Origin: Xanthostigma xanthostigma
Lineage: Eukaryota; Arthropoda; Insecta; Raphidioptera; Raphidiidae
NCBI GenBank assembly: GCA_963575645.1
Contig: OY754470.1
Coordinates: 27,324,501-27,388,500, forward strand
Length of the DNA stretch: 64,000 nucleotides
Reading direction: 5' to 3'
Below, piece by piece: positions 24,977-62,069 of the stretch (position 1 is its first letter; each line of letters opens with the position of its first letter). The position numbers were made by a program, and so were the translations under genes. The notes below the pieces were generated by a model that saw nothing but the letters and a program-made list of their open reading frames with translations, had not been told where the DNA came from and did no database searches.

Positions 24977-24989
24977 TGGCCCCCCCAGC
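24977..24989 (-). promoter_or_regulatory. Polypurine tract
   Basis: On minus, GCTGGGGGGGCCA abuts the TGTAACG start of the 3' LTR. Just upstream, agcggttcat and atgaaccgct form a small inverted repeat. Confidence 0.8.
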
Positions 24990-25082
24990 GGTTCATACGA
25001 ACAATTTTAGAATAAAGAAATGCATGGAGGATGAACCGCTTAAATAAATGGGAATTATGTACTACTACCTGGAATTTTACGA

Positions 25083-27069: not shown

Positions 27070-27161
27070 TATAGTTAATTGATTTAATAATAATTATTGA
27101 TATTAGTATTAAAATGTCCAAAATGTCACTTGGTGTTAGTCTGAATAATTTCCGAGGTCCA

Positions 27162-27179
27162 GTCTTTTTTCGGGCGCCA
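27162..27179 (-). promoter_or_regulatory. Primer-binding site
   Basis: TGGCGCCCGAAAAAAGAC on minus, two bases from the end of the 5' LTR. The first nine bases match primer sites complementary to Lys-type tRNA 3' ends; the A-run is a departure. Confidence 0.75.
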
Positions 27180-27181
27180 AA

Positions 27182-27719
27182 TGTAACGATTAGCCTTGGA
27201 CTTTTTCGGATAAGCTCACGTAATCGTCTCGTAATATAATTTAAAATAAATTTTAATAAAATTAATAAACAATTTAAAATATTTATTTTGAATGTTTTAT
27301 TATAAAATTGTTGTTAACAAGATATCTTAGAATGTACACACAGAAAATTTCTGATATGTTAAAGTGATTGGAATTGACAAAGTGAAAAATAATCCATTAA
27401 ACGACACATACAAAAAGAAATTTGGATCGGTAGATCACCAAGTACTCCAGATTCTCCCTGATGTGATTTAAAAGAAATATTTCAACACTTTTTCACAGCT
27501 TATTTTTAATACATCCTATTTCAACCTTTTAAAACCTACTGCCTTTTTTCAGACAAAAAAACATATTTTGTTTCTTTATTTCACGGCGTCGTTCAACATG
27601 CCAAAACCAAAATTGACACGCGCCGTGACAAAACAAATAGACAAGTACAGTAAATACCCAATTCTAATTATTACCTCTAAACTACGTACAATGTAATATA
27701 AAAGTTTTGAATCGTTACA
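27182..27719 (-). repeat. 5' LTR
   Basis: 538 bp, same ends and same length as the left LTR, identical as far as read. Followed on the right by the tctc target duplicate. Confidence 0.9.
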
Positions 27720-28815: not shown

Positions 28816-29296
28816 AAAATTGTAAAATACTAAAAGCAGACTATTGTTTTATTTGCAAATTGCAGCTATTACAATATTTTTTATGTACCTATTGGTTCGA
28901 CAGTCCGAGCATCCCGTCACACGTATAACCTGAGTAATTATAGTGTGTGTGTGTGTATACGACACACAATCACAATATATAGTATGTATGTTGTATACGC
29001 ATGATAAGTATTATATAAGATTTGAAAGAAACAAATTGTATGGAATGCATACAAATAGCTGCACTGTGTCAATAATCATCGGTTGAAATGCAACACGTAC
29101 CTACATCAAATTCTTATTATTCACACTTAGCAAATTTTCAGAAGGAAAAATATGTATTTTTTTTTTTGCTTAAAAATGTTCGAAATATTATGTGAAATAT
29201 GCCTACAAAATTTCAATACGATAATAGTAAGATATAAATAATTAGAATATACAATTCATACAACATAAAACAAAAGAAGTTTTGCCGGATATTCTT

Positions 29297-29686
29297 CAAT
29301 AAATAAAATTATTGACCAATTTTTCAGACAAATATATTAACAAAAAATATAAAAATTAATACATTAACGTTTCGGTCCGGATTTGGAGCTTCTTCAGAAC
29401 TGATCTAAAAAATATAAAAATTAATTAATAATCAGTTTCTAATTGATTTTTGAATAAAATTCGCTTAAAGTTTTTAATTATCAAATATTGAAAAAATAAT
29501 AAGAAACATTTTTTTATAAATTTTTTTCAAAAACCAATTAGAAACTAATTATTAATTAATTATTATAATTTATTTTAGATCAGTTCTGTAGAAGATCCAA
29601 ATCCGGACCGAAACGTTAATGTATTAATTTTTATATTTTTTGTTAATATATTTGTCTGAAAAATTGGTCGATAATTTTATTTATTG
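29297..29686. repeat. 390-bp hairpin element A
   Basis: Left 'caataaataaaattattgac' returns as 'gataattttatttattg' after long arms that include acgtttcggtccggatttgg and its complement ccaaatccggaccgaaacgt. The cassette 'ctgnagaag ... ccggaccgaaacgt' recurs at 31805-31860 and 34377-34415. Confidence 0.85.
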
Positions 29687-29715
29687 ATTAATTCAATTAT
29701 ATTACTTAATTTTTA

Positions 29716-30228
29716 TTAGAAGATTAAGAAGGAAGAATCCTGGTGGCATAGGATCGATGAAAAAAGCAAATACTGAAGATTTTTATTGCATTTTTATTAT
29801 CTGACGCTTCGGCACACTTTATGCCATCTTCGGAGAATCAATGCTGTCCATTTTTTCAGTATTATTGTTATGTATAAAGTAAATTAAAATAAAAATTGTC
29901 ATCAAAGGTATTAAATTACTATTTATCTTGAAAGAACGAATAGATTTTTACTGAAAACTGTATAAATGTGTCTGTTACTTGTATAAAGTTATAACTTTAT
30001 ACAAGTAACAGACACAGATAAATAGTAATTTAATACCTTTGATGACAATTTTTATTTTAATTTACTTTATACATAACAATAATACTGAAAAAATGGACAG
30101 CATTGATTCTCCGAAAATGGCATAAAGTGTGCCGAAACGTCAGATAATAAAAATGCAATAAAAATCTTCAGTATTTGCTTTTTTCATCGATCCTATGCCA
30201 CCAGGATTCTTCCTTCTTAATCTTCTAA
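29716..30228. repeat. 513-bp hairpin element B
   Basis: Arms run from 'ttagaagattaagaaggaag' to 'cttccttcttaatcttctaa'. The core near 29970-30015 is a perfect palindrome (gttacttgtataaagttat / ataactttatacaagtaac). Carries 'tcctggtggcataggatcga' and a gaaacgtcag cassette, both shared with element C at 35653. The arms differ at a few bases, so it is not a sequencing fold-back of one strand. Confidence 0.85.
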
Positions 30229-30239
30229 CAATTGAACAG

Positions 30240-35643: not shown

Positions 35644-35652
35644 TTTTCTTTT

Positions 35653-35856
35653 TGGAAGATTAAAAGGATGAATCCTGGTGGCATAGGATCGATGAACTAA
35701 GCAAATACTGAAGGTTTTTTTATTGCATTTTATTGTCTGACGTTTCGGAAATCTTTATACCATCTTCGTCAGACAATAAAATGTAATAAAAAAACCTTCA
35801 GTATTTGCTTAGTTCATCGATCCTATGTCACCAGGATTCATCCTTTTAATCTTCCA
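35653..35856. repeat. 204-bp hairpin element C
   Basis: Arms from 'tggaagattaaaaggatgaa' to 'ttcatccttttaatcttcca', nearly perfect, sharing 'tcctggtggcataggatcga' and the 3' flank 'ctataaattattagagtt' with element B. The loop, read on minus, is ctgacgaagatgg ... ccgaaacgtcag. Confidence 0.85.
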
Positions 35857-36238
35857 ACATTTAAACAGGATCATCGTCACTATAAATTATTAGAGTTATT
35901 TTTCACTATTTTTCTTCATACCTCGGTCGTAAGCACGCATATTAAAAACATTAATTACTTATTAAGTACACAAAAACACAGATAAATTCGAAGCAAGAAG
36001 CTTTGAGGTTATACGTAAAAACACGAATGACAGCTGTTCGCGACTATTAGCTAAAATGTAATAGGGTTGCTATGGAAACCACATCTAAACAACAGTTGAT
36101 TGGTTGTTTTTGTTTTTTTCTACCACCCGAACGTACGAACTTCTCGCATTGGTGCGTGTAATCCCACCAAAAAATAAATGTAAGACTTTCTGCCTTACAA
36201 TTGATGCCGAAAGTATGCACTTTCGATCGAGGTGTGAA

Positions 36239-41573: not shown

Positions 41574-42041
41574 AAGTTATTTATTCGCCAACTCTATACA
41601 TCATAACTGATTGCAGTAAAAGAATGAACCAGTTCCGAACATATTATATAACTGTACCGAACAAACAATAGATTGCACTTTTTCGTTTTTTTAAACTATT
41701 TTTTAAAGTTTTACTGAATTCACCAACTTTGATGGAAGCACTATTGTTTGCTACTCAGTCCTCATTTCAACTGTAAATAATATTTATGCTGGTAAGAAAC
41801 TTGGCGCATGTAATTAATCGATGCCTGGAAAAGTTTTTTATGACTGCATCATTTTTCATTTTCAAATAAATCGACTAAATTGAATTATTGCACTATTCTA
41901 ATGTGTAAATTTTAATTCCAATTTTAATATAAAGAAGATAGTGGTATACTTTCTAAAAGCATACTTGTCTTGATTTAGTTTTCATTATCCATTTAATTTG
42001 TATCACATTTTGTAAAGAAACCTAAAAAACACACCACCGAC

Positions 42042-42845
42042 GGCTCCGTGAAACCAGCCGCAACTTTGTTAGCCGCATGGACCAAAATGGGTGGGCTGGT
42101 TTGTGCTTCGTTTGTGCCCTTTCCTGCTTTAAAAATTTTCGTTCCTGCTTTTAGCGTTTCCGAGAAAATCGAAAATTTTATAACTGCGGCCAGGATCACG
42201 CCAGCCGCAACTTTTTTGATTTTGTAATTTTTTTACTTGCGGCTGGTTTGTGCTTCGTTTGTGCCCTTTCCTGCTCCAAAAAAATTCGTTCCTGCTTTTC
42301 GCGTTTCCGAGAAAATCGAAGAAATTTTAGCTGCGGCCAGGTTCACGCTAGCCGCAACTTTTTGGAATTTGTACATTTTTTACTTGCGGCTGGTTTGTGC
42401 TTCGTTTGTGCCTTTTCCTGCTTAAAAAAATTTCGTTCCTGCTTTTCCCGTTCTCGAGAAAATCAAAAAAGAAAATTCGGTAAGCGTGAAGTTAGCCGCA
42501 ACTTTGTTAGCCGCACGGACCAAAATAGGTGGGATGGATTGAGCTTCGTTTGTGCCTTTTCCTGCTTAAAAAATTTTCGTTCCTGCTTTACGAGTTTCCG
42601 AGAAAAATACGAAAAAAGAAAATGCAATTCTACACTGACCGGCACAAAAAACGCAACACCTAAAATGATGACCAGTTTAGAATTGCAATAACTTTTAAAC
42701 GTATCGCTCGACTTGAATGAGTTTTTTTTTATTTGAAAGGTCTATGCTTTGTCAATATTTCTGTAAGTGCTCTGCTCATTTTGGCGCTCTTCCATTTCGG
42801 CTGTAAAGAATAACGCTAATGCTCGTTTTCCCCATACACATTGAA
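42042..42845 (+). repeat. Left terminus with four ~147-bp repeats
   Basis: 'ggctggtttgtgcttcgttt' begins units at 42094, 42241 and 42388, with a variant at 42532 (spacing 147, 147, 144). Each unit has 'gttcctgctttt', 'tccgagaaaatcga' and 'gccgcaacttt'. Because 147 is 49 codons, a repeat-derived 147-residue frame stays open; it is not a gene. A ~200-bp linker joins the satellite array and begins 'cactgaccggcacaaaaaac'. Confidence 0.85.
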
Positions 42846-45800
42846 ATCTGTGTTTTTGCATATTCTCTACTTGCAGCTCGAAAAACTGTTTAGAACTGCT
42901 AAAGTATTATGACGCGGCTGATTAGTGCCTACTATGGAAAGTTTCCTGCCTTCATAATATGTTCGAAATATTTAACCCTTTCTAGAGAAAATCGACATAT
43001 TCTAATATATCTGTGTTTTTACTTATTCTGGACGTGCGGCTCGAGAAACTGTTTGGAACTGCTGATGTATTATGACGCGGCTGATTAGTGCCTACTGTGG
43101 AAAGATTCCTGCCTTCATAATATGTTCGGAAAACTTAACCCTCTCTGGAGAAAATCGACATATTCTAATATATCTGTGTTTTTACTTATTCTGGACGTGC
43201 GGCTCGAGAAACTGTTTGGAACTGCTGATGTATTATGACGCGGCTGATTAGTGCCTACTGTGGAAAGATTCCTGCCTTCATAATATGTTCGGAAAACTTA
43301 ACCCTCTCTGGAGAAAATCGACATATTCTAATATATCTGTGTTTTTACTTATTCTGGACGTGCGGCTCGAGAAACTGTTTGGAACTGCTGAAGTATTATG
43401 ACGTGGCTGATTAGTGCCTACTATGGAAAGATTCCTGCCTTCATAATATGTTCGGAAAATTTAACCCTTTATAGAGAAAATCGACATATTCTAATATATC
43501 TGTGTTTTTACGTATTCTGGACGTGCGGCTCGACAAACTGTTTGGAACTGCTGAAGTATTATGACGTGGCTGATTAGTGCCTACTATGGAAAGATTCCTG
43601 CCTTCATAATATGTTCGGAAAATCTAACCCTTTTTGGAGAAAATCGACATATTCTAATATATCTATGTTTTTACGTATTCTGGACGTGCGGCTCGACAAA
43701 CTGTTTGGAACTGCTGAATTATTATGATGCGGATGATTAGTGCCTACTATGGAAAGATTCCTGCCTCCATAATATGTTCGGAATATTTAACCCTTTCTAA
43801 AGAAAAACGACATATTCTAATATATCTGTGTTTTTACGTATTCTGGACGTGCGGCTGGACAAACTGTTTGGAACTGCTGAAGTATTATGACGTGGCTGAT
43901 TAGTGCCTACTATGGAAAGATTCCTGCCTTCATAATATGTTCGGAATATTTAACCCTTTCTAAAGAAAATCGACATATTCTAATATATCTGTGTTTTTAC
44001 TTATTCTGGACGTGCGGCTCGAGAAACTGTTTGGAACTGCTGAAGTATTATGACGCGGCTGATTAGTGCCTACTATGGAAAGATTCCTGCCTCCATAATA
44101 TGTTCGGAATATTTAACCCTTTCTAAAGAAAATCGACATATTCTAATATATCTGTGTTTTTACTTATTCTGGACGTGCGGCTCGAGAAACTGTTTGGAAC
44201 TGCTGAAGTATTATGACGCGGCTGATTAGTGCCTACTATGGAAAGATTCCTGCCTTCATAATATGTTCGGAAAATTTAACCCTTTGTAGAGAAAATCGAC
44301 ATATTCTCATATATCTGTGTTTTTACGTATTCTGGACGTGCGGCTCGAAAAACTGTTTGGAACTGCTGAAGTATTATGTTGCGGCTGATTAGTACCTACT
44401 ATGGAAAGATTCCTGCCTTCATAATATGTTCGGAAAATTTAACCCTTTTTGGAGAAAATCGACATATTCTAATATATCTATGTTTTTACGTATTCTGGAC
44501 GTGCGGCTCGACAAACTGTTTGGAACTGCTGATGTATTATGACTCAGCTGATTAGTGCCTACTATGGAAAGATTCCTGCCTTCATAATATGTTCGGAATA
44601 TTTAACCCTTTCTAAAGAAAATCGACATATTATAATATATCTGTGTTTTTACTTATTCTGGACGTGCGGCTCGAGAAACTGTTTGGAACTGCTGATGTAT
44701 TATGACGCGGCTGATTAGTGCCTACTGTGGAAAGATTCCTGCCTTCATAATATGTTCGGAAAACTTAACCCTCTCTGGAGAAAATCGACATATTCTAATA
44801 TATCTGTGTTTTTACTTATTCTGGACGTGCGGCTCGAGAAACTGTTTGGAACTGCTGAAGTATTATGACGTGGCTGATTAGTGCCTACTATGGAAAGATT
44901 CCTGCCTTCATAATATGTTCGAAAAATTTAACCCTTTATAGAGAAAATCGACATATTCTAATATATCTGTGTTTTTACGTATTCTGGACGTGCGGCTCGA
45001 CAAACTGTTTGGAACTGCTGAAGTATTATGACGTGGCTGATTAGTGCCTACTATGGAAAGATTCCTGCCTTCATAATATGTTCGGAAAATCTAACCCTTT
45101 TTGGAGAAAATCGACATATTCTAATATATCTATGTTTTTACGTATTCTGGACGTGCGGCTCGACAAACTGTTTGGAACTGCTGAATTATTATGATGCGGA
45201 TGATTAGTGCCTACTATGGAAAGATTCCTGCCTCCATAATATGTTCGGAATATTTAACCCTTTCTAAAGAAAAACGACATATTCTAATATATCTGTGTTT
45301 TTACGTATTCTGGACGTGCGGCTCGACAAACTGTTTGGAACTGCTGAAGTATTATGACGTGGCTGATTAGTGCCTACTATGGAAAGATTCCTGCCTTCAT
45401 AATATGTTCGGAATATTTAACCCTTTCTAAAGAAAATCGACATATTCTAATATATCTGTGTTTTTACTTATTCTGGACGTGCGGCTCGAGAAACTGTTTG
45501 GAACTGCTGAAGTATTATGACGCGGCTGATTAGTGCCTACTATGGAAAGATTCCTGCCTCCATAATATGTTCGGAATATTTAACCCTTTCTAAAGAAAAT
45601 CGACATATTCTAATATATCTGTGTTTTTACTTATTCTGGACGTGCGGCTCGAGAAACTGTTTGGAACTGCTGAAGTATTATGACGCGGCTGATTAGTGCC
45701 TACTATGGAAAGATTCCTGCCTTCATAATATGTTCGGAAAATTTAACCCTTTGTAGAGAAAATCGACATATTCTCATATATCTGTGTTTTTACGTATTCT

Positions 45801-48800
45801 GGACGTGCGGCTCGAAAAACTGTTTGGAACTGCTGAAGTATTATGTTGCGGCTGATTAGTACCTACTATGGAAAGATTCCTGCCTTCATAATATGTTCGG
45901 AAAATTTAACCCTTTTTGGAGAAAATCGACATATTCTAATATATCTATGTTTTTACGTATTCTGGACGTGCGGCTCGACAAACTGTTTGGAACTGCTGAT
46001 GTATTATGACTCAGCTGATTAGTGCCTACTATGGAAAGATTCCTGCCTTCATAATATGTTCGGAAAATTTAACCCTTTATAGAGAAAATCGACATATTCT
46101 AATATATCTGTGTTTTTACGTATTCTGGACGTGCGGCTCGACAAACTGTTTGGAACTGCTGATGTATTATGACGCGGCTGATTAGTGCCTACTATAGAAA
46201 GATTCCTGCCTTCATAATATGTTCGGAAAATTTAACCCTTTATAGAGAAAATCGACATATTCTAATATATCTGTGTTTTTACGTATTCTGGACGTGCGGC
46301 TCGACAAACTGTTTGGAACTGCTGAAGTATTATGACGTGGCTGATTAGTGCCTACTATGGAAAGATTCCTGCCTCCATAATATGTTCGGAAAATTTAACC
46401 CTTTTTGGAGAAAATCGACATATTCTAATATATCTATGTTTTTACGTATTCTGGACGTGCGGCTCGACAAACTGTTTGGAACTGCTGATGTATTATGACG
46501 CGGCTGATTAGTGCCTACTATAGAAAGATTCCTGCCTTCATAATATGTTCGGAAAATTTAACCCTTTATAGAGAAAATCGACATATTCTAATATATCTGT
46601 GTTTTTACGTATTCTGGACGTGCGGCTCGACAAACTGTTTGGAACTGCTGACGTATTATGACGCGGCTGATTAGTGCCTACTATGGAAAGATCCTGCCTT
46701 CATAATATGTTCGGAAAATTCAACCCTTTATAGAGAAAATCGACATATTCTAATATATCTGTGTTTTTACGTATTCTGGACGTGCGGCTCGACAAACTGT
46801 TTGGAACTGCTGAAGTATTATGACGTGGCTGATTAGTGCCTACTATGGAAAGATTCCTGCCTTCATAATCGGTTCGGAAAATTTAACCCTTTATAGAGAA
46901 AATCGACATATTCTCATATATCTGTGTTTTTACGTATTCTGGATGTGCGGCTCGAAAAACTGTTTGGAACTGCTGAAGTATTATGTTGCGGCTGATTAGT
47001 ACCTACTATGGAAAGATTCCTGCCTTCATAATATGTTCGGAAAATTTAACCTTTTCCAGAGAAAATCGACATATTCTAATATATCTGTGTTTTTACTTAT
47101 TCTGGACGTGCGGCTCGAGAAACTGTTTGGAACTGCTGAAGTATTATGACGCGGCTGATTAGTGCCTACTATGGAAAGATTCCTGCCTTCATAATATGTT
47201 CGGAAAATTTACCCTTTCTAAAGAAAATCGACATATTCTAATATATCTGTGTTTTTACTTATTCTGGACGTGCGGCTCGAGAAACTGTTTGGAACTGCTG
47301 AAGTATTATGACGCGGCTGATTAGTGCCTACTATGGAAAGATTCCTGCCTTCATAATATGTTCGGAAAATTTAACCCTTTATAGAGAAAATCGACATATT
47401 CTAATATATCTATGTTTTTACGTATTCTGGACGTGCGGCTCGACAAACTGTTTGGAACTGCTAAAGTATTATGTTGCGGCTGATTAGTGCCTACTATGGA
47501 AAGATTCCTGCCTTCATAATATGTTCGGAAAATTTAACCCTTTTTGGAGAAAATCGACATATTCTAATATATCTATGTTTTTACGTATTCTGGACGTGCG
47601 GCTCGACAAACTGTTTGGAACTGCTGATGTATTATGACGCGGCTGATTAGTGCCTACTATAGAAAGATTCCTGCCTTCATAATATGTTCGGAAAATTTAA
47701 CCCTTTATAGAGAAAATCGACATATTCTAATATATCTGTGTTTTTACGTATTCTGGACGTGCGGCTCGACAAACTGTTTGAAACTGCTGATGTATTATGA
47801 CGCGGCTGATTAGTGCCTACTATGGAAAGATTCCTGCCTTCATAATATGTTCGGAAAATTTAACCCTTTATAGAGAAAATCGACATATTCTAATATATCT
47901 GTGTTTTTACGTATTCTGGACGTGCGGCTCGACAAACTGTTTGGAACTGCTGATGTATTATAACGCGGCTGATTAGTGCCTACTATGGAAAGATTCCTGC
48001 CTTCATAATATGTTCGGAAAATTTAACCCTTTATAGAGAAAATCGACATATTCTAATATATCTGTGTTTTTACGTATTCTGGATGTGCGGCTCGAAAAAC
48101 TGTTTGGAACTGCTGAAGTATTATGTTGCGGCTGATTAGTACCTACTATGGAAAGATTCCTGCCTTCATAAAATGTTCGGAAAATTTAACCCTTTCCAGA
48201 GAAAATCGACATATTCTAATATATCTGTGTTTTTACTTATTCTGGACGTGCGGCTCGAGAAACTGTTTGGAACTGCTGAAGTATTATGACGCGGCTGATT
48301 AGTGCCTACTATGGAAAGATTCCTGCCTTCATAATATGTTCGGAAAATTTAACCCTTTATAGAGAAAATCGACATATTCTAATATATCTGTGTTTTTACG
48401 TATTCTGGACGTGCGGCTCGAGAAACTGTTTGGAACTGCTGAAGTATAATGACGCGGCTGATTAGTGCCTACTATGGAAAGATTCCTGCCTTCATAATAT
48501 GTTCGGAATATTTAACCCTTTCTAAAGAAAATCGACATATTCTAATATATCTGTGTTTTTACTTATTCTGGACGTGCGGCTCGACAAACTGTTTGGAACT
48601 GCTGATGTATTATGACGCGGCTGATTAGTGCCTACTATAGAAAGATTCCTGCCTTCATAATATGTTCGGAAAATTTAACCCTTTATAGAGAAAATCGACA
48701 TATTCTAATATATCTGTGTTTTTACTTATTCTGGACGTGCGGCTCGAGAAACTGTTTGGAACTGCTGAAGTATTATGACGCGGCTGATTAGTGCCTACTA

Positions 48801-51800
48801 TGGAAAGATTCCTGCCTTCATAATATGTTCGGAAAATCTAACCCTTTTTGGAGAAAATCGACATATTCTAATATATCTATGTTTTTACGTATTCTGGACG
48901 TGCGGCTCGACAAACTGTTTGGAACTGCTGATGTATTATGACTCGGCTGATTAGTGCCTACTATGGAAAGATTCCTGCCTTCATAATATGTTCGGAAAAT
49001 TTTACCCTTTATAGAGAAAATCGACATATTCTAATACATCTGTGTTTTTACGTATTCTGGACGTGCGGCTCGAGAAACTGTTTGGAACTGCTAAAGTATT
49101 ATGACGTGGCTGATTAGTGCCTGCTATGGAAAGATTCCTGCCTTCATAATATGTTCGGAAAAATTAACCCTTTTTGGAGAAAATCGACATATTCTAATAT
49201 ATCTATGTTTTTACGTATTCTGGACGTGCGGCTCGACAAACTGTTTGGAACTGCTGATGTATTATGACTCAGCTGATTAGTGCCTACTATGGAAAGATTC
49301 CTGCCTTCATAATATGTTCGGAAAATTTAACCCTTTATAGAAAAAATCGACATATTCTAATATATCTGTGTTTTTACGTATTCTGGACGTGCGGCTCGAC
49401 AAACTGTTTGGAACTGCTGATGTATTATGACGCGGCTGATTAGTGCCTACTATGGAAAGATTCCTGCCTTCATAATATGTTCGGAAAATCTAACCCTTTT
49501 TGGAGAAAATCGACATATTCTAATATATCTATGTTTTTACGTATTCTGGACGTGCGGCTCGACAAACTGTTTGGAACTGCTGATGGATTATGACTCAGCT
49601 GATTAGTGCCTACTATGGAAAGATTCCTGCCTTCATAATATGTTCGGAAAATTTAACCCTTTATAGAGAAAATCGACATATTCTAATATATCTGTGTTTT
49701 TACGTATTCTGGACGTGCGGCTCGACAAACTGTTTGGAACTGCTGATGTATTATGACGCGGCTGATTAGTGCCTACTATGGAAAGATTCCTGCCTTCATA
49801 ATATGTTCGGAAAATTTAACCCTTTATAGAGAAAATCGACATATTCTCATATATCTGTGTTTTTACGTATTCTGGATGTGCGGCTCGAAAAACTGTTTGG
49901 AACTGCTGACGTATTATGACGCGGCTGATTAGTGCCTACTATGGAAAGATTCCTGCCTCCATAATATGTTCAAAATATTTACCCTTTCTAAAGAAAATCG
50001 ACATATTCTAATATATCTGTGTTTTTACTTATTCTGGACGTGCGGCTCGAGAAACTGTTTGGAACTGCTGACGTATTATGACGCGGCTGATTAGTGCCTA
50101 CTATGGAAAGATCCTGCCTTCATAATATGTTCGGAAAATTCAACCCTTTATAGAGAAAATCGACATATTCTAATATATCTGTGTTTTTACGTATTCTGGA
50201 CGTGCGGCTCGACAAACTGTTTGGAACTGCTGAAGTATTATGACGTGGCTGATTAGTGCCTACTATGGAAAGATTCCTGCCTTCATAATATGTTCGGAAA
50301 ATTTAACCCTTTATAGAGAAAATCGACATATTCTCATATATCTGTGTTTTTACGTATTCTGGATGTGCGGCTCGAGAAACTGTTTGGAACTGCTGAAGTA
50401 TTATGACGCGGCTGATTAGTGCCTACTATGGAAAGATTCCTGCCTCCATAATATGTTCGGAATATTTACCCTTTCTAAAGAAAATCGACATATTCTAATA
50501 TATCTGTGTTTTTACTTATTCTGGACGTGCGGCTCGAGAAACTGTTTGGAACTGCTGAAGTATTATGACGCGGCTGATTAGTGCCTACTATGGAAAGATT
50601 CCTGCCTTCATAATATGTTCGGAAAATTTAACCCTTTATAGAGAAAATCGACATATTCTAATATATCTATGTTTTTACGTATTCTGGACGTGCGGCTCGA
50701 CAAACTGTTTGGAACTGCTAAAGTATTATGTTGCGGCTGATTAGTGCCTACTATGGAAAGATTCCTGCCTTCATAATATGTTCGGAAAATTTAACCCTTT
50801 TTGGAGAAAATCGACATATTCTAATATATCTATGTTTTTATGTATTCTGGACGTGCGGCTCGACAAACTGTTTGGAACTGCTGATGTATTATGACGCGGC
50901 TGATTAGTGCCTACTATAGAAAGATTCCTGCCTTCATAATATGTTCGGAAAATTTAACCCTTTATAGAGAAAATCGACATATTCTAATATATCTGTGTTT
51001 TTACGTATTCTGGACGTGCGGCTCGACAAACTGTTTGAAACTGCTGATGTATTATGACGCGGCTGATTAGTGCCTACTATGGAAAGATTCCTGCCTTCAT
51101 AATATGTTCGGAAAATTTAACCCTTTATAGAGAAAATCGACATATTCTCATATATCTGTGTTTTTACGTATTCTGGATGTGCGGCTCGAAAAACTGTTTG
51201 GAACTGCTGAAGTATTATGTTGCGGCTGATTAGTACCTACTATGGAAAGATTCCTGCCTTCATTATATGTTCGGAAAATTTAACCTTTTCCAGAGAAAAT
51301 CGACATATTCTAATATATCTGTGTTTTTACTTATTCTGGACGTGCGGCTCGAGAAACTGTTTGGAACTGCTGAAGTATTATGACGCGGCTGATTAGTGCC
51401 TACTATGGAAAGATTCCTGCCTTCATAATATGTTCGGAAAATTTAACCCTTTATAGAGAAAATCGACATATTCTAATATATCTGTGTTTTTACGTATTCT
51501 GGACGTGCGGCTCGAGAAACTGTTTGGAACTGCTGATGTATTATGACGCGGCTGATTAGTGCCTACTGTGGAAAGATTCCTGCCTTCATAATATGTTCGG
51601 AAAACTTAACCCTCTCTGGAGAAAATCGACATATTCTAATGTATCTGTGTTTTTACGTATTCTGGACGTGCGGCTCGACAAACTGTTTGGAACTGCTGAA
51701 GTATTATGATGCGGATGATTAGTGCCTACTATGGAAAGATTCCTGCCTTCATAATATGTTCGGAAAATTTAACCCTTTTTGGAGAAAATCGACATATTCT

Positions 51801-51811
51801 AATATATCTGT
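42846..51811 (+). repeat. Left satellite array, 163-bp monomer, about 55 copies
   Basis: Monomer landmarks in order: gaaaatcgacatattctaat, gtgtttttac(g/t)tattctgg, acgtgcggctcga, actgtttggaactgctga, attatgacg(c/t)ggctgatt, agtgcctactatggaaagat, cctgccttcataatatgttc, ggaaaatttaaccctttat. The 163-bp spacing was measured at 42928, 43091 and 43254. Variant monomers form a nine-unit higher-order repeat: 43254 to 44721 and 43716 to 45183, each 1,467 bp. The first monomer is diverged. Frames such as 48818-49027 are shadows. Confidence 0.95.
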
Positions 51812-53921
51812 ATTTTTTATTATGCTCTTGAGCAAGTAGTCTTTACAAGAACATACTTACTTTAGGGAATTTTTTAACATTACCCAATTCGTATTTGTAT
51901 TTGTTCTAAATACTCCTGAGTATTTTTGCAAGCGTATATTTGCTTTAGAATTTTTTTTTTTTAATTGGCTAACCCTATATACGTACCTATATATATATAC
52001 TTGCTTAAAAATGTTTTTTATACATATCACTTAGAAGTTTTTGTATTGAAATTTCAAATACATTATAAATATTTGTATTTGTAGTTAAATACTTTATAGA
52101 AGGTATATATTAATCGATGTTAAATTGAAAAACATTGATTTTTTCGATACATTGACTAAAAGTAATGCTTTCTTATTGCAATGTTCTCCACGTTGTTTCC
52201 TATTATTGTAAAGAATAATTCAAAATTTAAAAATATAAAATGTTTGGAGTATTATTTAAAATTAACTGTCTTGTATATTGAAAAAACCCAATCCGCGCGG
52301 TGATTACTTGACATCAAAATATCAAAAAAATACTATTTAATTTCTTTCTGACCTTTTGTTTTCCAAGAATTAAGATTTGCTTCAACTAATTGTACCTAAA
52401 TATAGGTATAATTATTATATTTATATTGAATATTGGTACATAAATGTATTTTGTACTCCTTGCTGTAGAATATCTCTATATTTGAAAATATTGACGTTTT
52501 TTTCGATTATTTTACAACGTCGATTTTCTTCAGTCGATATTTTTTTTAAATTTTGCGCACCCTTAGTATATACAGTAATATTGTTCATTTTAAAATGCTG
52601 ACACAATAAAATTTTGTTATCGCATAAAGACAACACACAATATATTACCTACGCAAGATGCTTACGGTCATTGACCTGTTAGTGCATGGGTGTAGCTTTT
52701 CGATCAGTTCATTTCTGAAAGTTGGTTAATGCATAATAATAATATAGCAACAATGTGATACAATTCACGCTTTTTCTAATAGGTATAATACTGTCTACTA
52801 AATTATTTTTTTTAGAATGTTCAGGACCGTATCCAGCACTGCTCTTTTAAGAGATAATTTTTTTCGAACAGTACTTTAATTTTCGTGGTGCACTATTTAA
52901 AAATGAAAAAAAAGATCACCCAACCCAAGGTTAATTATTGTGCTATTTTGTATTTTTCATTCATCACTTTTTATTTTTTTTTCTTATTCTAAAATATTTG
53001 GTAAAATGTAATCAACAAGTCGATATGAATATACTGTGTGTGTAGCAACCGAAAATAGCCGATGGAGCAATTACACTTGAAGTCTGATTAACTAAAAGGT
53101 TGTTCAGAGAAATATTAGATCCAGAAATACTGAAATTTTGTATAGCACTGAAAACATTCGTAGCTGTGTACCAATTCCCGAATCACGACGTCATAGCTAC
53201 GATAAACTGTCTCTTGCGTTTGTTGTTTATTTGTTTAAACTAGTGATGTGCCGGATCGTTAAAAATGCATATCCGCGAATACGGATCTGAATACGGATAT
53301 TTGGTTTCAAGATCCGCGGATACAGATACGGATATTTGGTTTCAAGATCCGCGGATACGGATCTTAACTTTCTTAGAGTACGCGGCGGTAAATATTGCAC
53401 ATCGACCTTTGGAAAGAGACTGTTATGGGAAAAAGTTATTGACTTCTTTAAGAGTTAACTCTCATAACAGATTCCAGAGATCGATGTGCAATATAAAGAT
53501 AGTTTTTTATTAGTACCTTTGAGTTATGTACTATTGGTATGGTACTCACTACGATAAATTTTTGCAATATAAAGGTTCCAAATACGATTTTAAGAAAAAT
53601 AATCTGAATGGAATTTAACAGTTTTTCATTATTACCTAATCACCTTTATATATAAAATTTCATCTATGAATTGAAAATTATTAAGGAAAAAAGTTTCGTA
53701 AAAAATCCGCCATAAAACTAACGGATACGGATACGGATCTTTCTTCTCCCTCGGATATCCGCGGATACGGATACGGTTATCCGGCACATCACTAGTTTAA
53801 ACTGATTTATATGTCTTACTGTAAAGTACGTATAAATAAATGTTGCTAACTTGGTTTTAATTGATTTAATAGCTTCCATTTTCCTTATATTCCTGACAAA
53901 ACTATAAAACATAGATTTTAC
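51812..53921. other. Central spacer of the foldback element
   Basis: Unique AT-rich sequence with no transposase or other recognised gene; frames at 52377-52636 are short and opposed. It contains the hAT MITE at 53241. Both arrays stop at the same place in the monomer (just after cgacatattct), as if the two arms once shared one inner boundary. Confidence 0.75.
53241..53794. mobile_element. hAT MITE (554 bp) in the spacer, perfect 8-bp TSD
   Basis: Termini TAGTGATGTGCCGGAT and its complement; flanks gtttaaac on both sides (53233-53240, 53795-53802). Rich in 'gatccgcggatacggat' words at both ends. No transposase. Confidence 0.9.
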
Positions 53922-56900
53922 AGAATATGTCGATTTTCTCTGGAAAGGATTAAATTTTCAAAAAATACTATTAAATCAGGAATCTTTCCATAATAGGCAC
54001 TAATCATCCGCATCATAATACTTCAGCAGTTCCAAACAGTTTCTCGAGCCGCACGTCCAGAATAAGTAAAAACACAGATATATTAGAATATGTCGATTTT
54101 CTTTAGAAAGGGTTAAATATTCCGAACATATTATGGAGGCAGGAATCTTTCCATAGTAGGCACTAATCAGCCGCGTCATAATACTTCAGCAGTTCCAAAC
54201 AGTTTCTCGAGCCGCACGTCCAGAATAAGTAAAAACACAGATATATTAGAATATGTCGATTTTCTTTAGAAAGGGTTAAATATTCCGAACATATTATGAA
54301 GGCAGGAATCTTTCCATAGTAGGCACTAATCAGCCACGTCATAATACTTCAGCAGTTCCAAACAGTTTGTCGAGCCGCACGTCCAGAATACGTAAAAACA
54401 TAGATATATTAGAATATGTCGATTTTCTCCAAAAAGGGTTAAATTTTCCGAACATATTATGGAGGCAGGAATCTTTCCATAGTAGGCACTAATCAGCCGC
54501 GTCATAATACATCAGCAGTTCCAAACAGTTTGTCGAGCCGCACGTCCAGAATACGTAAAAACACAGATATATTAGAATATGTCGATTTTCTCTAGAAAGG
54601 GTTAAATTTTCCGAACATATTATGAAGGCAGGAATCTTTCCATAGTAGGCACTAATCAGCTGAGTCATAATACATCAGCAGTTCCAAACAGTTTGTTGAG
54701 CCGCACGTCCAGAATACGTAAAAACACAGATATATTAGAATATGTCGATTTTCTCTACAAAGGGTTAAATTTTCCGAACATATTATGAAGGCAGGAATCT
54801 TTCCATAGTAGGCACTAATCAGCCGCGTCATAATACATCAGCAGTTCCAAACAGTTTGTCGAGCCGCACGTCCAGAATACGTAAAAACACAGATATATTA
54901 GAATATGTCGATTTTCTCTACAAAGGGTTAAATTTTCCGAACATATTATGAAGGCAGGAATCTTTCCATAGTAGGCACTAATCAGCTGAGTCATAATACA
55001 TCAGCAGTTCCAAACAGTTTGTCGAGCCGCACGTCCAGAATACGTAAAAACATAGATATATTAGAATATGTCGATTTTCTCCAAAAAGGGTTAAATTTTC
55101 CGAACATATTATGAAGGCAGGAATCTTTCCATAGTAGGTACTAATCAGCCGCAACATAATACTTCAGCAGTTCCAAACAGTTTTTCGAGCCGCACGTCCA
55201 GAATACGTAAAAACACAGATATATGAGAATATGTCGATTTTCTCTACAAAGGGTTAAATTTTCCGAACATATTATGAAGACACGAATCTTTCCATAGTAG
55301 GCACTAATCAGCCGCGTCATAATACTTCAGCAGTTCCAAACAGTTTCTCGAGCCGCACGTCCAGAATAAGTAAAAACACAGATATATTAGAATATGTCGA
55401 TTTTCCTTAGAAAGGGTTAAATATTCCGAACATTTTATGGAGGCAGGAATCTTTCCATAGTAGGCACTAATCAGCCGCGTCATAATACTTCAGCAGTTCC
55501 AAACAGTTTCTCGAGCCGCACGTCCAGAATAAGTAAAAACACAGATATATTAGAATATGTCGATTTTCTTTAGAAAGGGTTAAATATTCCGAACATATTA
55601 TGAAGGCAGGAATCTTTCCATAGTAGGCACTAATCAGCTACGTCATAATACTTCAGCAGTTCCAAACAGTTTGTCGAGCCGCACGTCCAGAATACGTAAA
55701 AACACAGATATATTAGAATATGTCGTTTTTCTTTAGAAAGGGTTAAATATTCCGAACATATTATGGAGGCAGGAATCTTTCCATAGTAGGCACTAATCAT
55801 CCGCATCATAATAATTCAGCAGTTCCAAACAGTTTGTCGAGCCGCACGTCCAGAATACGTAAAAACATAGATATATTAGAATATGTCGATTTTCTCCAAA
55901 AAGGGTTAGATTTTCCGAACATATTATGAAGGCAGGAATCTTTCCATAGTAGGCACTAATCAGCCACGTCATAATACTTCAGCAGTTCCAAACAGTTTGT
56001 CGAGCCGCACGTCCATAATACGTAAAAACACAGATATATTAGAAAATGTCGATTTTCTCTATAAAGGGTTAAATTTTCCGAACATATTATGAAGGCAGGA
56101 ATCTTTCCATAGTAGGTACTAATCAGCCGCAACATAATACTTCAGCAGTTCCAAACAGTTTTTCGAGCCGCACATCCAGAATACGTAAAAACACAGATAT
56201 ATGAGAATATGTCGATTTTCTCTATAAAGGGTTAAATTTTCCGAACATATTATGAAGGCAGGAATCTTTCCATAGTAGGCACTAATCAGCCACGTCATAA
56301 TACTTCAGCAGTTCCAAACAGTTTGTCGAGCCGCACGTCCAGAATACGTAAAAACATAGATATATTAGAATATGTCGATTTTCTCCAAAAAGGGTTAAAT
56401 TTTCCGAACATATTATGGAGGCAGGAATCTTTCCATAGTAGGCACTAATTAGCCGCGTCATAATACATCAGCAGTTCCAAACAGTTTGTCGAGCCGCACG
56501 TCCAGAATACGTAAAAACATAGATATATTAGAATATGTTGATTTTCTCCAAAAAGGGTTAAATTTTCCGAACATATTATGGAGGCAGGAATCTTTCCATA
56601 GTAGGCACTAATCAGCCGCGTCATAATACATCAGCAGTTCCAAACAGTTTGTCGAGCCGCACGTCCAGAATACGTAAAAACACAGATATATTAGAATATG
56701 TCGATTTTCTCTAGAAAGGGTTAAATTTTCCGAACATATTATGAAGGCAGGAATCTTTCCATAGTAGGCACTAATCAGCCGCGTCATAATACTTCAGCAG
56801 TTCCAAACAGTTTCTCGAGCCGCACGTCCAGAATAAGTAAAAACACAGATATATTAGAATATGTCGATTTTCTCTATAAAGGGTTAAATTTTCCGAACAT

Positions 56901-59900
56901 ATTATGAAGGCAGGAATCTTTCTATAGTAGGCACTAATCAGCCGCGTCATAATACATCAGCAGTTCCAAACAGTTTGTCGAGCCGCACGTCCAGAATAAG
57001 TAAAAACACAGATATATTAGAATATGTCGATTTTCTTTAGAAAGGGTTAAATATTCCGAACATATTATGAAGGCAGGAATCTTTCCATAGTAGGCACTAA
57101 TCAGCCGCGTCATTATACTTCAGCAGTTCCAAACAGTTTCTCGAGACGCACGTCCAGAATACGTAAAAACACAGATATATTAGAATATGTCGATTTTCTC
57201 TATAAAGGGTTAAATTTTCCGAACATATTATGAAGGCAGGAATCTTTCCATAGTAGGCACTAATCAGCCGCGTCATAATACTTCAGCAGTTCCAAACAGT
57301 TTCTCGAGCCGCACGTCCAGAATAAGTAAAAACACAGATATATTAGAATATGTCGATTTTCTCTGGAAAGGGTTAAATTTTCCGAACATTTTATGAAGGC
57401 AGGAATCTTTCCATAGTAGGTACTAATCAGCCGCAACATAATACTTCAGCAGTTCCAAACAGTTTTTCGAGCCGCACATCCAGAATACGTAAAAACACAG
57501 ATATATTAGAATATGTCGATTTTCTCTATAAAGGGTTAAATTTTCCGAACATATTATGAAGGCAGGAATCTTTCCATAGTAGGCACTTATCAGCCGCGTT
57601 ATAATACATCAGCAGTTCCAAACAGTTTGTCGAGCCGCACGTCCAGAATACGTAAAAACACAGATATATTAGAATATGTCGATTTTCTCTATAAAGGGTT
57701 AAATTTTCCGAACATATTATGAAGGCAGGAATCTTTCCATAGTAGGCACTAATCAGCCGCGTCATAATACATCAGCAGTTTCAAACAGTTTGTCGAGCCG
57801 CACGTCCAGAATACGTAAAAACACAGATATATTAGAATATGTCGATTTTCTCTATAAAGGGTTAAATTTTCCGAACATATTATGAAGGCAGGAATCTTTC
57901 TATAGTAGGCACTAATCAGCCGCGTCATAATACATCAGCAGTTCTAAACAGTTTGTCGAGCCGCACGTCCAGAATACGTAAAAACATAGATATATTAGAA
58001 TATGTCGATTTTCTCCAAAAAGGGTTAAATTTTCCGAACATATTATGAAGGCAGGAATCTTTCCATAGTAGGCACTAATCAGCCGCAACATAATACTTTA
58101 GCAGTTCCAAACAGTTTGTCGAGCCGCACGTCCAGAATACGTAAAAATATAGATATATTAGAATATGTCGATTTTCTCTATAAAGGGTTAAATTTTCCGA
58201 ACATATTATGAAGGCAGGAATCTTTCCATAGTAGGCACTAATCAGCCGCGTCATAATACTTCAGCAGTTCCAAACAGTTTCTCGAGCCGCACGTCCAGAA
58301 TAAGTAAAAACACAGATATATTAGAATATGTCGATTTTCTTTAGAAAGGGTAAATATTCCGAACATATTATGGAGGCAGGAATCTTTCCATAGTAGGCAC
58401 TAATCAGCCGCGTCATAATACTTCAGCAGTTCCAAACAGTTTCTCGAGCCGCACGTCCAGAATAAGTAAAAACACAGATATATTAGAATATGTCGATTTT
58501 CTCTGGAAAGGGTTAAATTTTCCGAACATATTATGAAGGCAGGAATTTTTCCATAGTAGGTACTAATCAGCCGCAACATAATACTTCAGCAGTTCCAAAC
58601 AGTTTTTCGAGCCGCACATCCAGGATACGTAAAAAGACAGATATATGAGAATATGTCGATTTTCTCTATAAAGGGTTAAATTTTCCGAACATATTATGAA
58701 GGCAGGAATCTTTCCATAGTAGGCACTTATCAGCCACGTCATAATACTTCAGCAGTTCCAAACAGTTTGTCGAGCCGCACGTCCAGAATACGTAAAAACA
58801 CAGATATATTAGAATATGTCGATTTTCTCTATAAAGGGTTGAATTTTCCGAACATATTATGAAGGCAGGATCTTTCCATAGTAGGCACTAATCAGCCGCG
58901 TCATAATACGTCAGCAGTTCCAAACAGTTTGTCGAGCCGCACGTCCAGAATACGTAAAAACACAGATATATTAGAATATGTCGATTTTCTCTATAAAGGG
59001 TTAAATTTTCCGAACATTTTATGAAGGCAGGAATCTTTCTATAGTAGGCACTAATCAGCCGCGTCATAATACTTTAGCAGTTCCAAACAGTTTGTCGAGC
59101 CGCACGTCCAGAATACGTAAAAACACAGATATATTAGAATATGTCGATTTTCTCTATAAAGGGTTAAATTTTCCGAACATATTATGAAGGCAGGAATCTT
59201 TCCATAGTAGGCACTAATCAGCTGAGTCATAATACATCAGCAGTTCCAAACAGTTTGTCGAGCCGCACGTCCAGAATACGTAAAAACATAGATATATTAG
59301 AATATGTCGATTTTCTCCAAAAAGGGTTAAATTTTCCGAGCATATTATGGAGGCAGGAATCTTTCCATAGTAGGCACTAATCATCCGCATCATAATACTT
59401 TAGCAGTTCCAAACAGTTTGTCGAGCCGCACGTCCAGAATACGTAAAAACACAGATATATTAGAATATGTCGATTTTCTCTATAAAGGGTTAAATTTTCC
59501 GAACATATTATGAAGGCAGGAATCTTTCCATAGTAGGCACTAATCAGCTGAGTCATAATACATCAGCAGTTCCAAACAGTTTGTCGAGCCGCACGTCCAG
59601 AATACGTAAAAACATAGATATATTAGAATATGTCGATTTTCTCCAAAAAGGGTTAAATTTTCCGAACATATTATGAAGGCAGGAATCTTTCCATAGTAGG
59701 TACTAATCAGCCGCAACATAATACTTCAGCAGTTCCAAACAGTTTTTCGAGCCGCACGTCCAGAATACGTAAAAACACAGATATATGAGAATATGTCGAT
59801 TTTCTCTACAAAGGGTTAAATTTTCCGAACATATTATGAAGGCAGGAATCTTTCCATAGTAGGCACTAATCAGCCGCGTCATAATACTTCAGCAGTTCCA

Positions 59901-61250
59901 AACAGTTTCTCGAGCCGCACGTCCAGAATAAGTAAAAACACAGATATATTAGAATATGTCGATTTTCTTTAGAAAGGGTTAAATATTCCGAACATATTAT
60001 GGAGGCAGGAATCTTTCCAAAGTAGGCACTAATCAGCCGCGTCATAATACTTCAGCAGTTCCAAACAGTTTCTCGAGCCGCACGTCCAGAATAAGTAAAA
60101 ACACAGATATATTAGAATATGTCGATTTTCTTTAGAAAGGGTTAAATATTCCGAACATATTATGAAGGCAGGAATCTTTCCATAGTAGGCACTAATCAGC
60201 CACGTCATAATACTTCAGCAGTTCCAAACAGTTTGTCGAGCCGCACGTCCAGAATACGTAAAAACACAGATATATTAGAATATGTCGTTTTTCTTTAGAA
60301 AGGGTTAAATATTCCGAACATATTATGGAGGCAGGAATCTTTCCATAGTAGGCACTAATCATCCGCATCATAATAATTCAGCAGTTCCAAACAGTTTGTC
60401 GAGCCGCACGTCCAGAATACGTAAAAACATAGATATATTAGAATATGTCGATTTTCTCCAAAAAGGGTTAGATTTTCCGAACATATTATGAAGGCAGGAA
60501 TCTTTCCATAGTAGGCACTAATCAGCCACGTCATAATACTTCAGCAGTTCCAAACAGTTTGTCGAGCCGCACGTCCAGAATACGTAAAAACACAGATATA
60601 TTAGAATATGTCGATTTTCTCTATAAAGGGTTAAATTTTCCGAACATATTATGAAGGCAGGAATCTTTCCATAGTAGGCACTAATCAGCCACGTCATAAT
60701 ACTTCAGCAGTTCCAAACAGTTTCTCGAGCCGCACGTCCAGAATAAGTAAAAACACAGATATATTAGAATATGTCGATTTTCTCCAGAGAGGGTTAAGTT
60801 TTCCGAACATATTATGAAGGCAGGAATCTTTCCACAGTAGGCACTAATCAGCCGCGTCATAATACATCAGCAGTTCCAAACAGTTTCTCGAGCCGCACGT
60901 CCAGAATAAGTAAAAACACAGATATATTAGAATATGTCGATTTTCTCCAGAGAGGGTTAAGTTTTCCGAACATATTATGAAGGCAGGAATCTTTCCACAG
61001 TAGGCACTAATCAGCCGCGTCATAATACATCAGCAGTTCCAAACAGTTTCTCGAGCCGCACGTCCAGAATAAGTAAAAACACAGATATATTAGAATATGT
61101 CGATTTTCTCTAGAAAGGGTTAAATATTTCGAACATATTATGAAGGCAGGAAACTTTCCATAGTAGGCACTAATCAGCCGCGTCATAATACTTTAGCAGT
61201 TCTAAACAGTTTTTCGAGCTGCAAGTAGAGAATATGCAAAAACACAGATT
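53922..61250 (-). repeat. Right satellite array, 163-bp monomer, about 45 copies
   Basis: Same monomer as the left array in reverse orientation. About 1.63 kb (ten monomers) shorter than the left array. It mirrors the left array for the outer ~1.7 kb of monomers, then variant order differs. The innermost monomer is the most diverged. Frames such as 57526-57765 are shadows. Confidence 0.95.
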
Positions 61251-62053
61251 TCAATGTGTATGGGGAAAACGAGCATTAGCGTTATTCTTTACAGCCGAAA
61301 TGGAAGAGCGCCAAAATGAGCAGAGCACTTACAGAAATATTGACAAAGCATAGACCTTTCAAATAAAAAAAAACTCATTCAAGTCGAGCGATACGTTTAA
61401 AAGTTATTGCAATTCTAAACTGGTCATCATTTTAGGTGTTGCGTTTTTTGTGCCGGTCAGTGTAGAATTGCATTTTCTTTTTTCGTATTTTTCTCGGAAA
61501 CTCGTAAAGCAGGAACGAAAATTTTTTAAGCAGGAAAAGGCACAAACGAAGCTCAATCCATCCCACCTATTTTGGTCCGTGCGGCTAACAAAGTTGCGGC
61601 TAACTTCACGCTTACCGAATTTTCTTTTTTGATTTTCTCGAGAACGGGAAAAGCAGGAACGAAATTTTTTTAAGCAGGAAAAGGCACAAACGAAGCACAA
61701 ACCAGCCGCAAGTAAAAAATGTACAAATTCCAAAAAGTTGCGGCTAGCGTGAACCTGGCCGCAGCTAAAATTTCTTCGATTTTCTCGGAAACGCGAAAAG
61801 CAGGAACGAATTTTTTTGGAGCAGGAAAGGGCACAAACGAAGCACAAACCAGCCGCAAGTAAAAAAATTACAAAATCAAAAAAGTTGCGGCTGGCGTGAT
61901 CCTGGCCGCAGTTATAAAATTTTCGATTTTCTCGGAAACGCTAAAAGCAGGAACGAAAATTTTTAAAGCAGGAAAGGGCACAAACGAAGCACAAACCAGC
62001 CCACCCATTTTGGTCCATGCGGCTAACAAAGTTGCGGCTGGTTTCACGGAGCC
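61250..62053 (-). repeat. Right terminus, mirror of 42042-42845
   Basis: Carries the same four ~147-bp units and linker in inverse order; no difference from the left terminus was noticed. The 147-residue minus frame 61404-61847 is identical to the left one, which confirms arm identity but not a protein. Confidence 0.9.
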
Positions 62054-62069
62054 ACCACCGACCATTATT

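What the first reader, a model, noticed from the sequence alone, without database searches (positions are those of the whole stretch)
42042..62053. A 20-kb foldback transposon whose arms are satellite DNA
Seen: a 9-bp TSD (accaccgac), 18-bp-plus identical inverted ends, two arms with mirror-exact termini, and about 100 copies of a 163-bp monomer arranged as two opposing arrays. Known: FB-type foldback elements have TIRs made of tandem repeats and a 9-bp TSD, but their repeat units are short. A foldback element with full-length satellite arrays as arms would show satellite DNA being moved, and perhaps founded, by transposition.
Basis: partly seen in the sequence, partly recalled or inferred. 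Interest (0 to 1): 0.88.

Follow-up and report, generated by a model that had tools for sequence, protein, structure and literature searches.

The report
Jumping gene with satellite-DNA arms
This 20-kb stretch is one copy of a mobile DNA element, probably in an insect, whose two mirrored arms are long runs of satellite DNA; dozens of copies have landed around the genome, and one pair of copies shows that the satellite runs travel with the element.

Summary
Window 42042-62053 (20,012 bp) lies between perfect 9-bp duplications (ACCACCGAC). Its arms are inverted: an 804-bp end domain, then 55 and 45 head-to-tail 163-bp monomers, around a 2.1-kb non-coding centre. The outer 1,815 bp of the arms are identical.

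The window's own genome (623 Mb) holds 57 + 57 copies of the terminal 27-mer. Of 44 convergent pairs checked (8.0-29.8 kb), 39 have perfect, all different, 9-bp duplications, 1 has 8 of 9, 4 have none; mispaired flanks gave 0 of 2,000. All 12 elements read in full have opposing satellite arrays (65-122 monomers).

Two copies 374 kb apart are the same 29,824-bp element in opposite orientation: 2 mismatches, unrelated flanks, different 9-bp duplications. So a whole satellite-armed unit has transposed. Copies with near-identical centres differ widely in array length and order.

Best reading: a recently active, non-autonomous foldback family, probably moved in trans by a Mutator-like transposase (53 MULE matches in the genome, none inside 46 element intervals). 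Closest precedent: Tetris of Drosophila virilis, whose complete copies have far shorter arrays. Not settled: the transposase, the host's name, and whether the satellite exists outside the elements.

The parts
42033..42041 (.). left 9-bp target-site duplication ACCACCGAC
   Evidence: read directly
62054..62062 (.). right 9-bp target-site duplication ACCACCGAC
   Evidence: read directly
42042..62053 (.). whole foldback element, 20,012 bp
42042..42845 (+). left end (flanking) domain, 804 bp, with 147-bp tandem units
   Evidence: found about 100% identical at the 40 scored places of 305 candidates in the genome
61250..62053 (-). right end (flanking) domain, 804 bp, inverted and identical to the left one
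42846..51817 (+). left satellite array, 55 monomers of 163 bp
53922..61249 (-). right satellite array, 45 monomers of 163 bp, opposite orientation
43156..44622 (+). left monomers 3-11, first copy of a 9-monomer duplication (matches right monomers 3-11)
   Evidence: coordinates derived by me from the anchors
44623..46089 (+). left monomers 12-20, second copy of the 9-monomer duplication (also matches right monomers 3-11)
   Evidence: coordinates derived by me from the anchors
51818..53921 (.). centre, non-coding; longest stop-free stretch 88 aa
   Evidence: same centre at C5:12198877-12200291 and, with a gap, at C1:34319820-34321065
53241..53794 (.). nested 554-bp element with inverted ends TAGTGATGTGCCGGAT and 8-bp duplication GTTTAAAC (hAT-like, by recall of end and duplication type)

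Best explanation
A recently active family of non-autonomous foldback DNA transposons whose arms are satellite arrays. Shown: near-identical 804-bp ends, opposing 163-bp arrays, non-coding centres, 9-bp target-site duplications at many sites, and intact transposition of one 29.8-kb array-bearing element. Inferred: a transposase made elsewhere in the genome, most likely Mutator-like, recognises the ends and cuts and pastes the whole unit. Inferred with moderate support: the monomer grew out of the element's own 147-bp end repeat. Inferred from array comparisons: arrays change length and order quickly by unequal exchange or template switching, and one half of an element can be copied onto the other, which helps to keep the outer arms alike.
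For: Window element: perfect 9-bp TSD, outer 1,815 bp of arms identical. Terminal 27-mer at 57 forward and 57 reverse places, 0 for the reversed control; the 100 places listed, of 114, are all exact. TSDs: 39 of 44 pairs perfect and all different, 1 at 8/9, 4 without; mispaired flanks 0 of 2,000. 12 of 12 fully read elements have a + array left and a - array right, 65-122 monomers, 67-83% of the element. C2:20371989-20401812 and C2:20745925-20775748: 29,824 bp each, 2 mismatches in opposite orientation, flanks unrelated, TSDs CATGATGAG and CTTACTCTC, same two nested insertions. Ordered runs of up to 11 monomers (<=1 difference each) shared between elements at different sites; 30 of 180 arm pairs have runs of 5 or more, against at most 1 in each of 100 order shuffles. 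Seven elements share a 3.09-kb centre 0.16-1.23% apart, 52 singleton (28 of them in one copy) against 3 shared substitutions, as in a burst. Monomer against three 147-bp units: scores 146, 145, 170; best of 1,000 shuffles 117, 116, 122; best of 1,000 host windows 139. One element's 4.56-kb centre is a palindrome about its midpoint with halves 99.8% identical, not seen in four others tested the same way. MULE transposase domains exist in the genome (53 matches).
Against: No transposase with these ends: 0 of 53 PF10551 matches lie in or within 1 kb of the 46 intervals formed by the 100 listed termini (14 termini were not listed), and two MULE loci read do not have the ends. Four of 44 pairs lack a TSD. 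Monomer origin is not supported by a strict local alignment (26 against a maximum of 34 in 500 shuffles) or by nhmmer, which ranked a shuffled sequence first. Monomer positions that agree with the end repeat are not better conserved, so binding-site function has no support here. Arm-to-arm likeness is uneven: in 3 of 10 elements the two arms share no ordered run of 4 or more, and the identical outer stretch runs from 260 to 1,815 bp, the window being the highest of 12. Array change without transposition also happens or cannot be excluded, so for most single copies I cannot say how much of the array arrived by transposition. The 12 elements read in full have both ends among the best-scoring 40, a biased sample. 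No raw reads were available.
Confidence: 0.88

Rival explanations
1. Short-armed elements inserted, and each array then grew in place after insertion; long-armed elements do not themselves move.
For: Copies with 99.55-100% identical centre pieces have left arrays of 33, 39 and 55 monomers, so arrays do change fast. The Tetris authors suggested that larger arrays may have disrupted transposition.
Against: Two 29,824-bp copies with 74 + 48 monomers are identical but for 2 bases at two sites with different TSDs. Ordered monomer runs are shared between sites. Of 46 intervals none is shorter than 8.0 kb.
Confidence: 0.06
2. Inverted segmental duplication or palindromic amplification of a satellite locus, not transposition.
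For: Long palindromes and satellites often arise by such routes (established knowledge); 4 of 44 pairs lack TSDs; one centre is a palindrome.
Against: 39 of 44 pairs have perfect, different 9-bp TSDs exactly at the same termini; the ends are constant.
Confidence: 0.02
3. A pre-existing host satellite was captured by a foldback transposon, rather than arising from the transposon's own end repeat.
For: A strict alignment and a profile search do not show homology of monomer and end repeat; MITE capture of an existing tandem repeat has been proposed for Xenopus (PMC12628747, passage seen).
Against: Permissive alignments of the monomer with the end domain beat all shuffles (300; 1,000) and all of 1,000 host windows; GCGGCTG, TTCCTGC and GAGAAAATC stand in the same order and close to the same spacing (alignment).
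Confidence: 0.25
4. The transposase is not Mutator-like (P-, Merlin- or other type).
For: Galileo, of the P superfamily, also has foldback-like arms (PMC3688188, passages); no autonomous copy was found here.
Against: 9-bp TSDs and long arms fit MULEs (8-10 bp; PMC5225508, passages), Tm1 and FB4; MULE genes are present in the genome.
Confidence: 0.2

Closest known systems
Tetris foldback element and its TIR-220 satellite, Drosophila virilis and D. americana (PMC4079207; parts 1-4 of 6 read)
   Same: End domain, then tandem repeats of satellite size, then a non-coding middle; 8-10 bp TSDs; no transposase found; tandem unit partly similar to the end domain (37 bp at about 80%).
   Different: Three structurally complete Tetris copies, arms up to 1,735 bp, three or four repeats in the arm described. 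Longer TIR-220 arrays (up to 66 copies in assembled contigs) and arrays flanked by two end domains were seen by sequence and fibre-FISH, but not as sequenced full elements with TSDs. Here 44 pairs of 8-30 kb were checked, 12 read in full with 65-122 monomers, and intact transposition is shown for one pair. No sequence comparison with Tetris was made.
FB / FB4 of Drosophila melanogaster (PMC8277862, passages only)
   Same: Repetitive long inverted arms, 9-10 bp TSDs, non-autonomous, thought to be MULE-related.
   Different: Arms about 700 bp there, against about 4.5-14 kb in the elements read here.
Tm1 Mutator/Foldback family, Meloidogyne (PMC3169594, passages only)
   Same: Composite inverted arms with tandem repeats, 8-10 bp (mostly 9) TSDs; has a coding member.
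   Different: 13-15 bp repeat units; elements of 1.1 and 2.6 kb in the passages seen.
Galileo, P superfamily, Drosophila (PMC3688188, passages only)
   Same: Arms with internal tandem repeats holding extra transposase-binding sites.
   Different: Arms a little over 1 kb; P-type transposase; TSD of 7 bp (recalled).
TCAST transposon-like elements, Tribolium castaneum (PMC3411249, passages only)
   Same: Satellite monomers in opposite orientation form part of the inverted ends.
   Different: At most 1.2 kb, about one monomer per side, 3-bp TSD in some copies (mariner-like).

Membership tests
Foldback (FB-type) transposons | long inverted arms built of tandem repeats | tested here: met
   12 of 12 elements read in full
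Foldback (FB-type) transposons | 9-bp target-site duplication | tested here: met
   39 of 44 pairs perfect, 1 at 8/9, 4 without
Foldback (FB-type) transposons | variable, usually non-coding middle between the arms | tested here: met
   two unrelated centre types plus a palindromic variant; longest stop-free stretches 88-105 aa in five centres
Mutator-like elements (MULE) | 8-10 bp TSD and long inverted ends | tested here: met
Mutator-like elements (MULE) | transposase of MULE type linked to the same ends | tested here: inconclusive
   53 PF10551 matches in the genome, 0 in 46 intervals; 2 loci read, ends absent; 14 of 114 termini not listed
Tetris | end domain, satellite-sized tandem repeats, middle; 8-10 bp TSD | tested here: met
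   paper features
Tetris | sequence homology of the ends | not tested
   no Tetris sequence was fetched
Satellite DNA | kb-long head-to-tail arrays of a >100-bp monomer | tested here: met
Satellite DNA | large arrays in heterochromatin, independent of a transposon | tested here: inconclusive
   genome-wide monomer count not answered; chromosome position not testable
TCAST-like / mariner elements | 2-3 bp TSD | tested here: not met
   9-bp TSDs

The most novel reading that the evidence does not exclude
A satellite that lives as a transposon: its arrays are founded from the element's end repeat, amplified inside the arms, and spread as 8-30 kb mobile units. Long arrays would be favoured at the level of transposition, for instance because each monomer carries an end-like module that recruits transposase, so this satellite grows by jumping better and not by drift in heterochromatin.
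Probability: 0.3. Interest if true: 0.9.

Novelty: new variant of a known kind. Interest (0 to 1): 0.78.

Why it matters
How satellites arise and reach new sites is an old question. Here a satellite and its vehicle are caught in one unit, at tens of sites in one assembly, with base-level proof for one pair that a 29.8-kb unit with 122 monomers moved intact. That goes against the suggestion that long arrays stop foldback elements from moving (Tetris paper). Because ends and centres are nearly constant while arrays differ, the copies form a natural clock for comparing array turnover with point mutation, and a ready system for testing whether array length affects transposition.

Tried and rejected
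Outside relatives: exact patterns from the monomer, end repeat and end domain gave 0 matches in viral contigs, and the end repeat gave 0 in genome contigs. Host naming by two window proteins gave only weak leads: best named hit Aromia moschata, 50% over 38% of the query; 11 unnamed or hypothetical hits for the ArfGAP-associated frame. 'Probably an insect' rests on that and on the general look of the sequence. Sub-threshold Pfam matches of the spurious frame at 42155-42688 were set aside.

Rejected: selection on the end-like core of the monomer (those positions vary more, 0.045 against 0.025). Monomer origin, mixed results told in full: strict local alignment negative (26 against 34 in 500 shuffles); an ungapped test was just positive (47 against at most 44 in 150 shuffles), two permissive gapped tests positive (23 against 17 and 247 against 159 in 300 shuffles), nhmmer negative (a shuffle ranked first); positive. 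Rejected: pairing C3:25804540 with C3:25826162; that left end sits in satellite sequence and the flanks do not match, so it was dropped before the count of 44. C10:23467502-23484468 was listed but its TSD not read. Seven listed termini had no listed partner (C1:34312647, 39224344, 43452799, 62830427; C2:24985823; C7:29331870; C12:12241381) and were not counted; 14 of 114 termini were not listed. TSD-less pairs could not be matched to each other's flanks as exchange products. A first distance-to-consensus printout was out of phase and is replaced. The 'other anchors' column was not used.

Not finished: genome-wide monomer count, reading more MULE loci and the remaining elements.
Full report
What is in the window. 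Positions 42042-62053 (20,012 bp) are flanked by ACCACCGAC on both sides, and that string occurs nowhere else in the window. Reading inwards from either end there is an 804-bp end domain with 2.6-3.6 copies of a 147-bp unit, then a head-to-tail array of 163-bp monomers: 55 on the left, 45 on the right, in opposite orientation. The first 1,815 bp of the two arms are identical. The centre (51818-53921) has no stop-free stretch over 88 aa and holds a nested 554-bp element with an 8-bp duplication. The element has no similarity to the rest of the window.

The arrays inside this copy. Monomers differ on average by about 5%. Left monomers 1-11 match right monomers 1-11 in order (mean 0.45 differences of 163). 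Left 12-20 match right 3-11 again (a 9-monomer duplication in the left arm), and left 27-37 match right 18-28. Shuffling the monomer order gave runs of at most 5 in 1,000 trials. So the arms were alike as ordered arrays over long stretches, and one has changed since.

Relation of monomer and end repeat. With permissive scoring the monomer aligns to three 147-bp units at 146, 145 and 170, above all of 1,000 shuffles (117, 116, 122) and all of 1,000 host windows (139); earlier permissive and ungapped tests also beat their shuffles. A stricter alignment (26 against a maximum of 34 in 500 shuffles) and a profile search, where a shuffle ranked first, do not show it. I take common origin as likely but not proven. 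Positions shared with the end repeat are not better conserved among monomers, so there is no sign here that they are under selection.

A family in the same genome. The window lies in a 623-Mb assembly of 28 contigs. The 804-bp end was found at about 100% identity at all 40 scored places, of 305 first-look candidates; these are the best matches, so identity is biased upwards. A count of the terminal 27-mer with up to 2 mismatches gave 57 forward and 57 reverse, 0 for the reversed control; 100 of the 114 places were listed, all exact. From those 100 I formed 46 convergent intervals of 8.0-29.8 kb, one of them a nested cluster on C3 and one not tested for TSD; seven termini had no listed partner. 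Of the 44 tested, 39 have perfect 9-bp TSDs, all different, one has 8 of 9, four have none. Mispairing the 30 flank pairs gave no match of 8 or more in 2,000 draws.

Structure of 12 elements read in full, the window's included. All 12 have one array on each side in foldback orientation, 65-122 monomers in all, 67-83% of the element. The outer stretch over which the two arms are identical runs from 260 to 1,815 bp. Among the 20 ends of the first ten, end domains differ on average by 0.3 of 804 bases, at most 2. Seven share a 3.09-kb centre at 0.16-1.23% difference, with 52 singleton (28 in one copy) and 3 shared substitutions, the star pattern of a burst; the two 29.8-kb copies have a 97.4-97.9% version of it. 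The window's centre belongs to a second type, found also at C5 and C1 and partly in C8:33362925-33376671. In four centres of the first type the longest stop-free stretch was 105 aa. The 3.09-kb centre contains an imperfect inverted repeat of its own (88% similarity within its second half). One element (C3:24190466-24211330) goes further: its whole 4.56-kb centre is a palindrome, halves 99.8% identical over 2,235 bp, and four other elements split at the midpoint show no match at the same threshold. One half was copied onto the other.

Do arrays travel? Yes, in at least one case. C2:20371989-20401812 and C2:20745925-20775748 are both 29,824 bp. One is the reverse complement of the other with 2 mismatches. 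Their flanks are unrelated and their TSDs are CATGATGAG and CTTACTCTC. Both carry 74 + 48 monomers and the same two insertions in the shorter array: an element of roughly 1.3 kb with inverted ends and a retroelement with reverse transcriptase and integrase domains. More widely, elements at different sites share ordered monomer runs of up to 11; 30 of 180 arm pairs have runs of 5 or more, against at most 1 in each of 100 shuffles.

Arrays change fast. The window, C5 and C1 copies have centres 99.55-100% identical over the aligned pieces but 55, 33 and 39 left monomers, with only 12-16 ordered matches per pair. Across ten elements, monomers at the same rank from the outer end match in 57% of comparisons at rank 1, falling to near the random level of about 2% by rank 18 or so; from the inner end only the last monomer stands out, at 14%. 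Among the seven elements with the shared centre, arms of one element share more order (0.43) than arms of different elements (0.29-0.36; shuffled about 0.2), but in 3 of 10 elements the two arms share no run of 4 or more, and for many arms the best match is in another element. I infer unequal exchange or template switching within arrays, with outer parts kept alike by conversion or recent descent. Template switching in repetitive FB4 ends has been proposed for Drosophila (PMC8277862, passages).

Mechanism and what moves it. The 9-bp TSD, long arms and fixed ends fit cut-and-paste by a Mutator-like transposase acting in trans. MULEs make 8-10 bp TSDs (PMC5225508, passages), and Tm1 foldbacks with a coding member mostly make 9 bp (PMC3169594, passages). 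The genome has 53 MULE-domain matches, several as repeated open frames of 422-799 aa. None lies in the 46 intervals, and two loci read lack the ends, one of them being a MULE with repetitive arms of its own. So the transposase step is inferred.

Compared with what is known. Tetris has the same plan on a small scale, and its authors proposed foldbacks as a source of satellites and that larger arrays may have disrupted transposition (parts 1-4 of 6 read). The present family differs in size, in the number of complete copies with TSDs, and in showing a long-armed unit transposing intact. In nine literature searches I saw, in the listings, no report of sequenced foldback elements with arms of tens of satellite monomers bounded by TSDs; that library lacks most subscription papers, and I opened only seven papers, most as passages.

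Limits. No reads, no second individual, no named host, no outgroup. The genome-wide monomer count did not complete, so the satellite may also exist elsewhere. Thirty-two of the 44 TSD-tested intervals were read only at their ends, or in part.

Noticed in passing
window 24439-27719: An LTR element on the minus strand: two 538-bp identical direct repeats (24439-24976, 27182-27719) with TG..CA ends, 4-bp duplication TCTC, primer-site-like TGGCGCCCGAAAAAAGAC and a purine tract; inside, no long gag/pol frame was seen but an apparently intronless, frameshifted ArfGAP (SMAP-like) coding copy (PF01412, 2e-26). It looks like a host transcript carried by an LTR retrotransposon.
   Followed up: partly
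window 53241-53794: Nested 554-bp hAT-like miniature element with 8-bp duplication GTTTAAAC inside the foldback centre.
   Followed up: partly
L057 (G000:C1:39077700-39082700): A MULE with a 422-aa open frame between inverted ends that are themselves internally repeated (400-542 and 3681-3814): a second, coding foldback-like family in the same genome, with no detected similarity to the end domain studied.
   Followed up: partly
G000 contig C10, about 8.8-16.3 Mb: 34 of 53 MULE-domain matches are on contig C10, 31 of them between 8.8 and 16.3 Mb, while only 1 of 46 foldback intervals is on C10.
   Followed up: no
G000:C3:25802284-25826162: Nested cluster: one terminus sits inside satellite DNA of the same family, so the element seems to insert into its own arrays.
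   Followed up: partly
G000:C2:20745925-20775748 and C2:20371989-20401812: Both copies carry a retroelement with a 1,070-aa reverse transcriptase/integrase frame inside an array: the foldback moved another element along with it.
   Followed up: partly
G000:C1:21705268, C1:23909876, C7:20088014, C9:25468477: Four convergent pairs without TSD; possible sites of ectopic exchange or rearrangement; no swapped partner found among the flanks compared.
   Followed up: partly
window 6210-6507, 29296-29687, 29716-30231, 35652-35857: Several near-perfect palindromes (88-94%) of 200-520 bp outside the element, perhaps other hairpin-type repeats.
   Followed up: no
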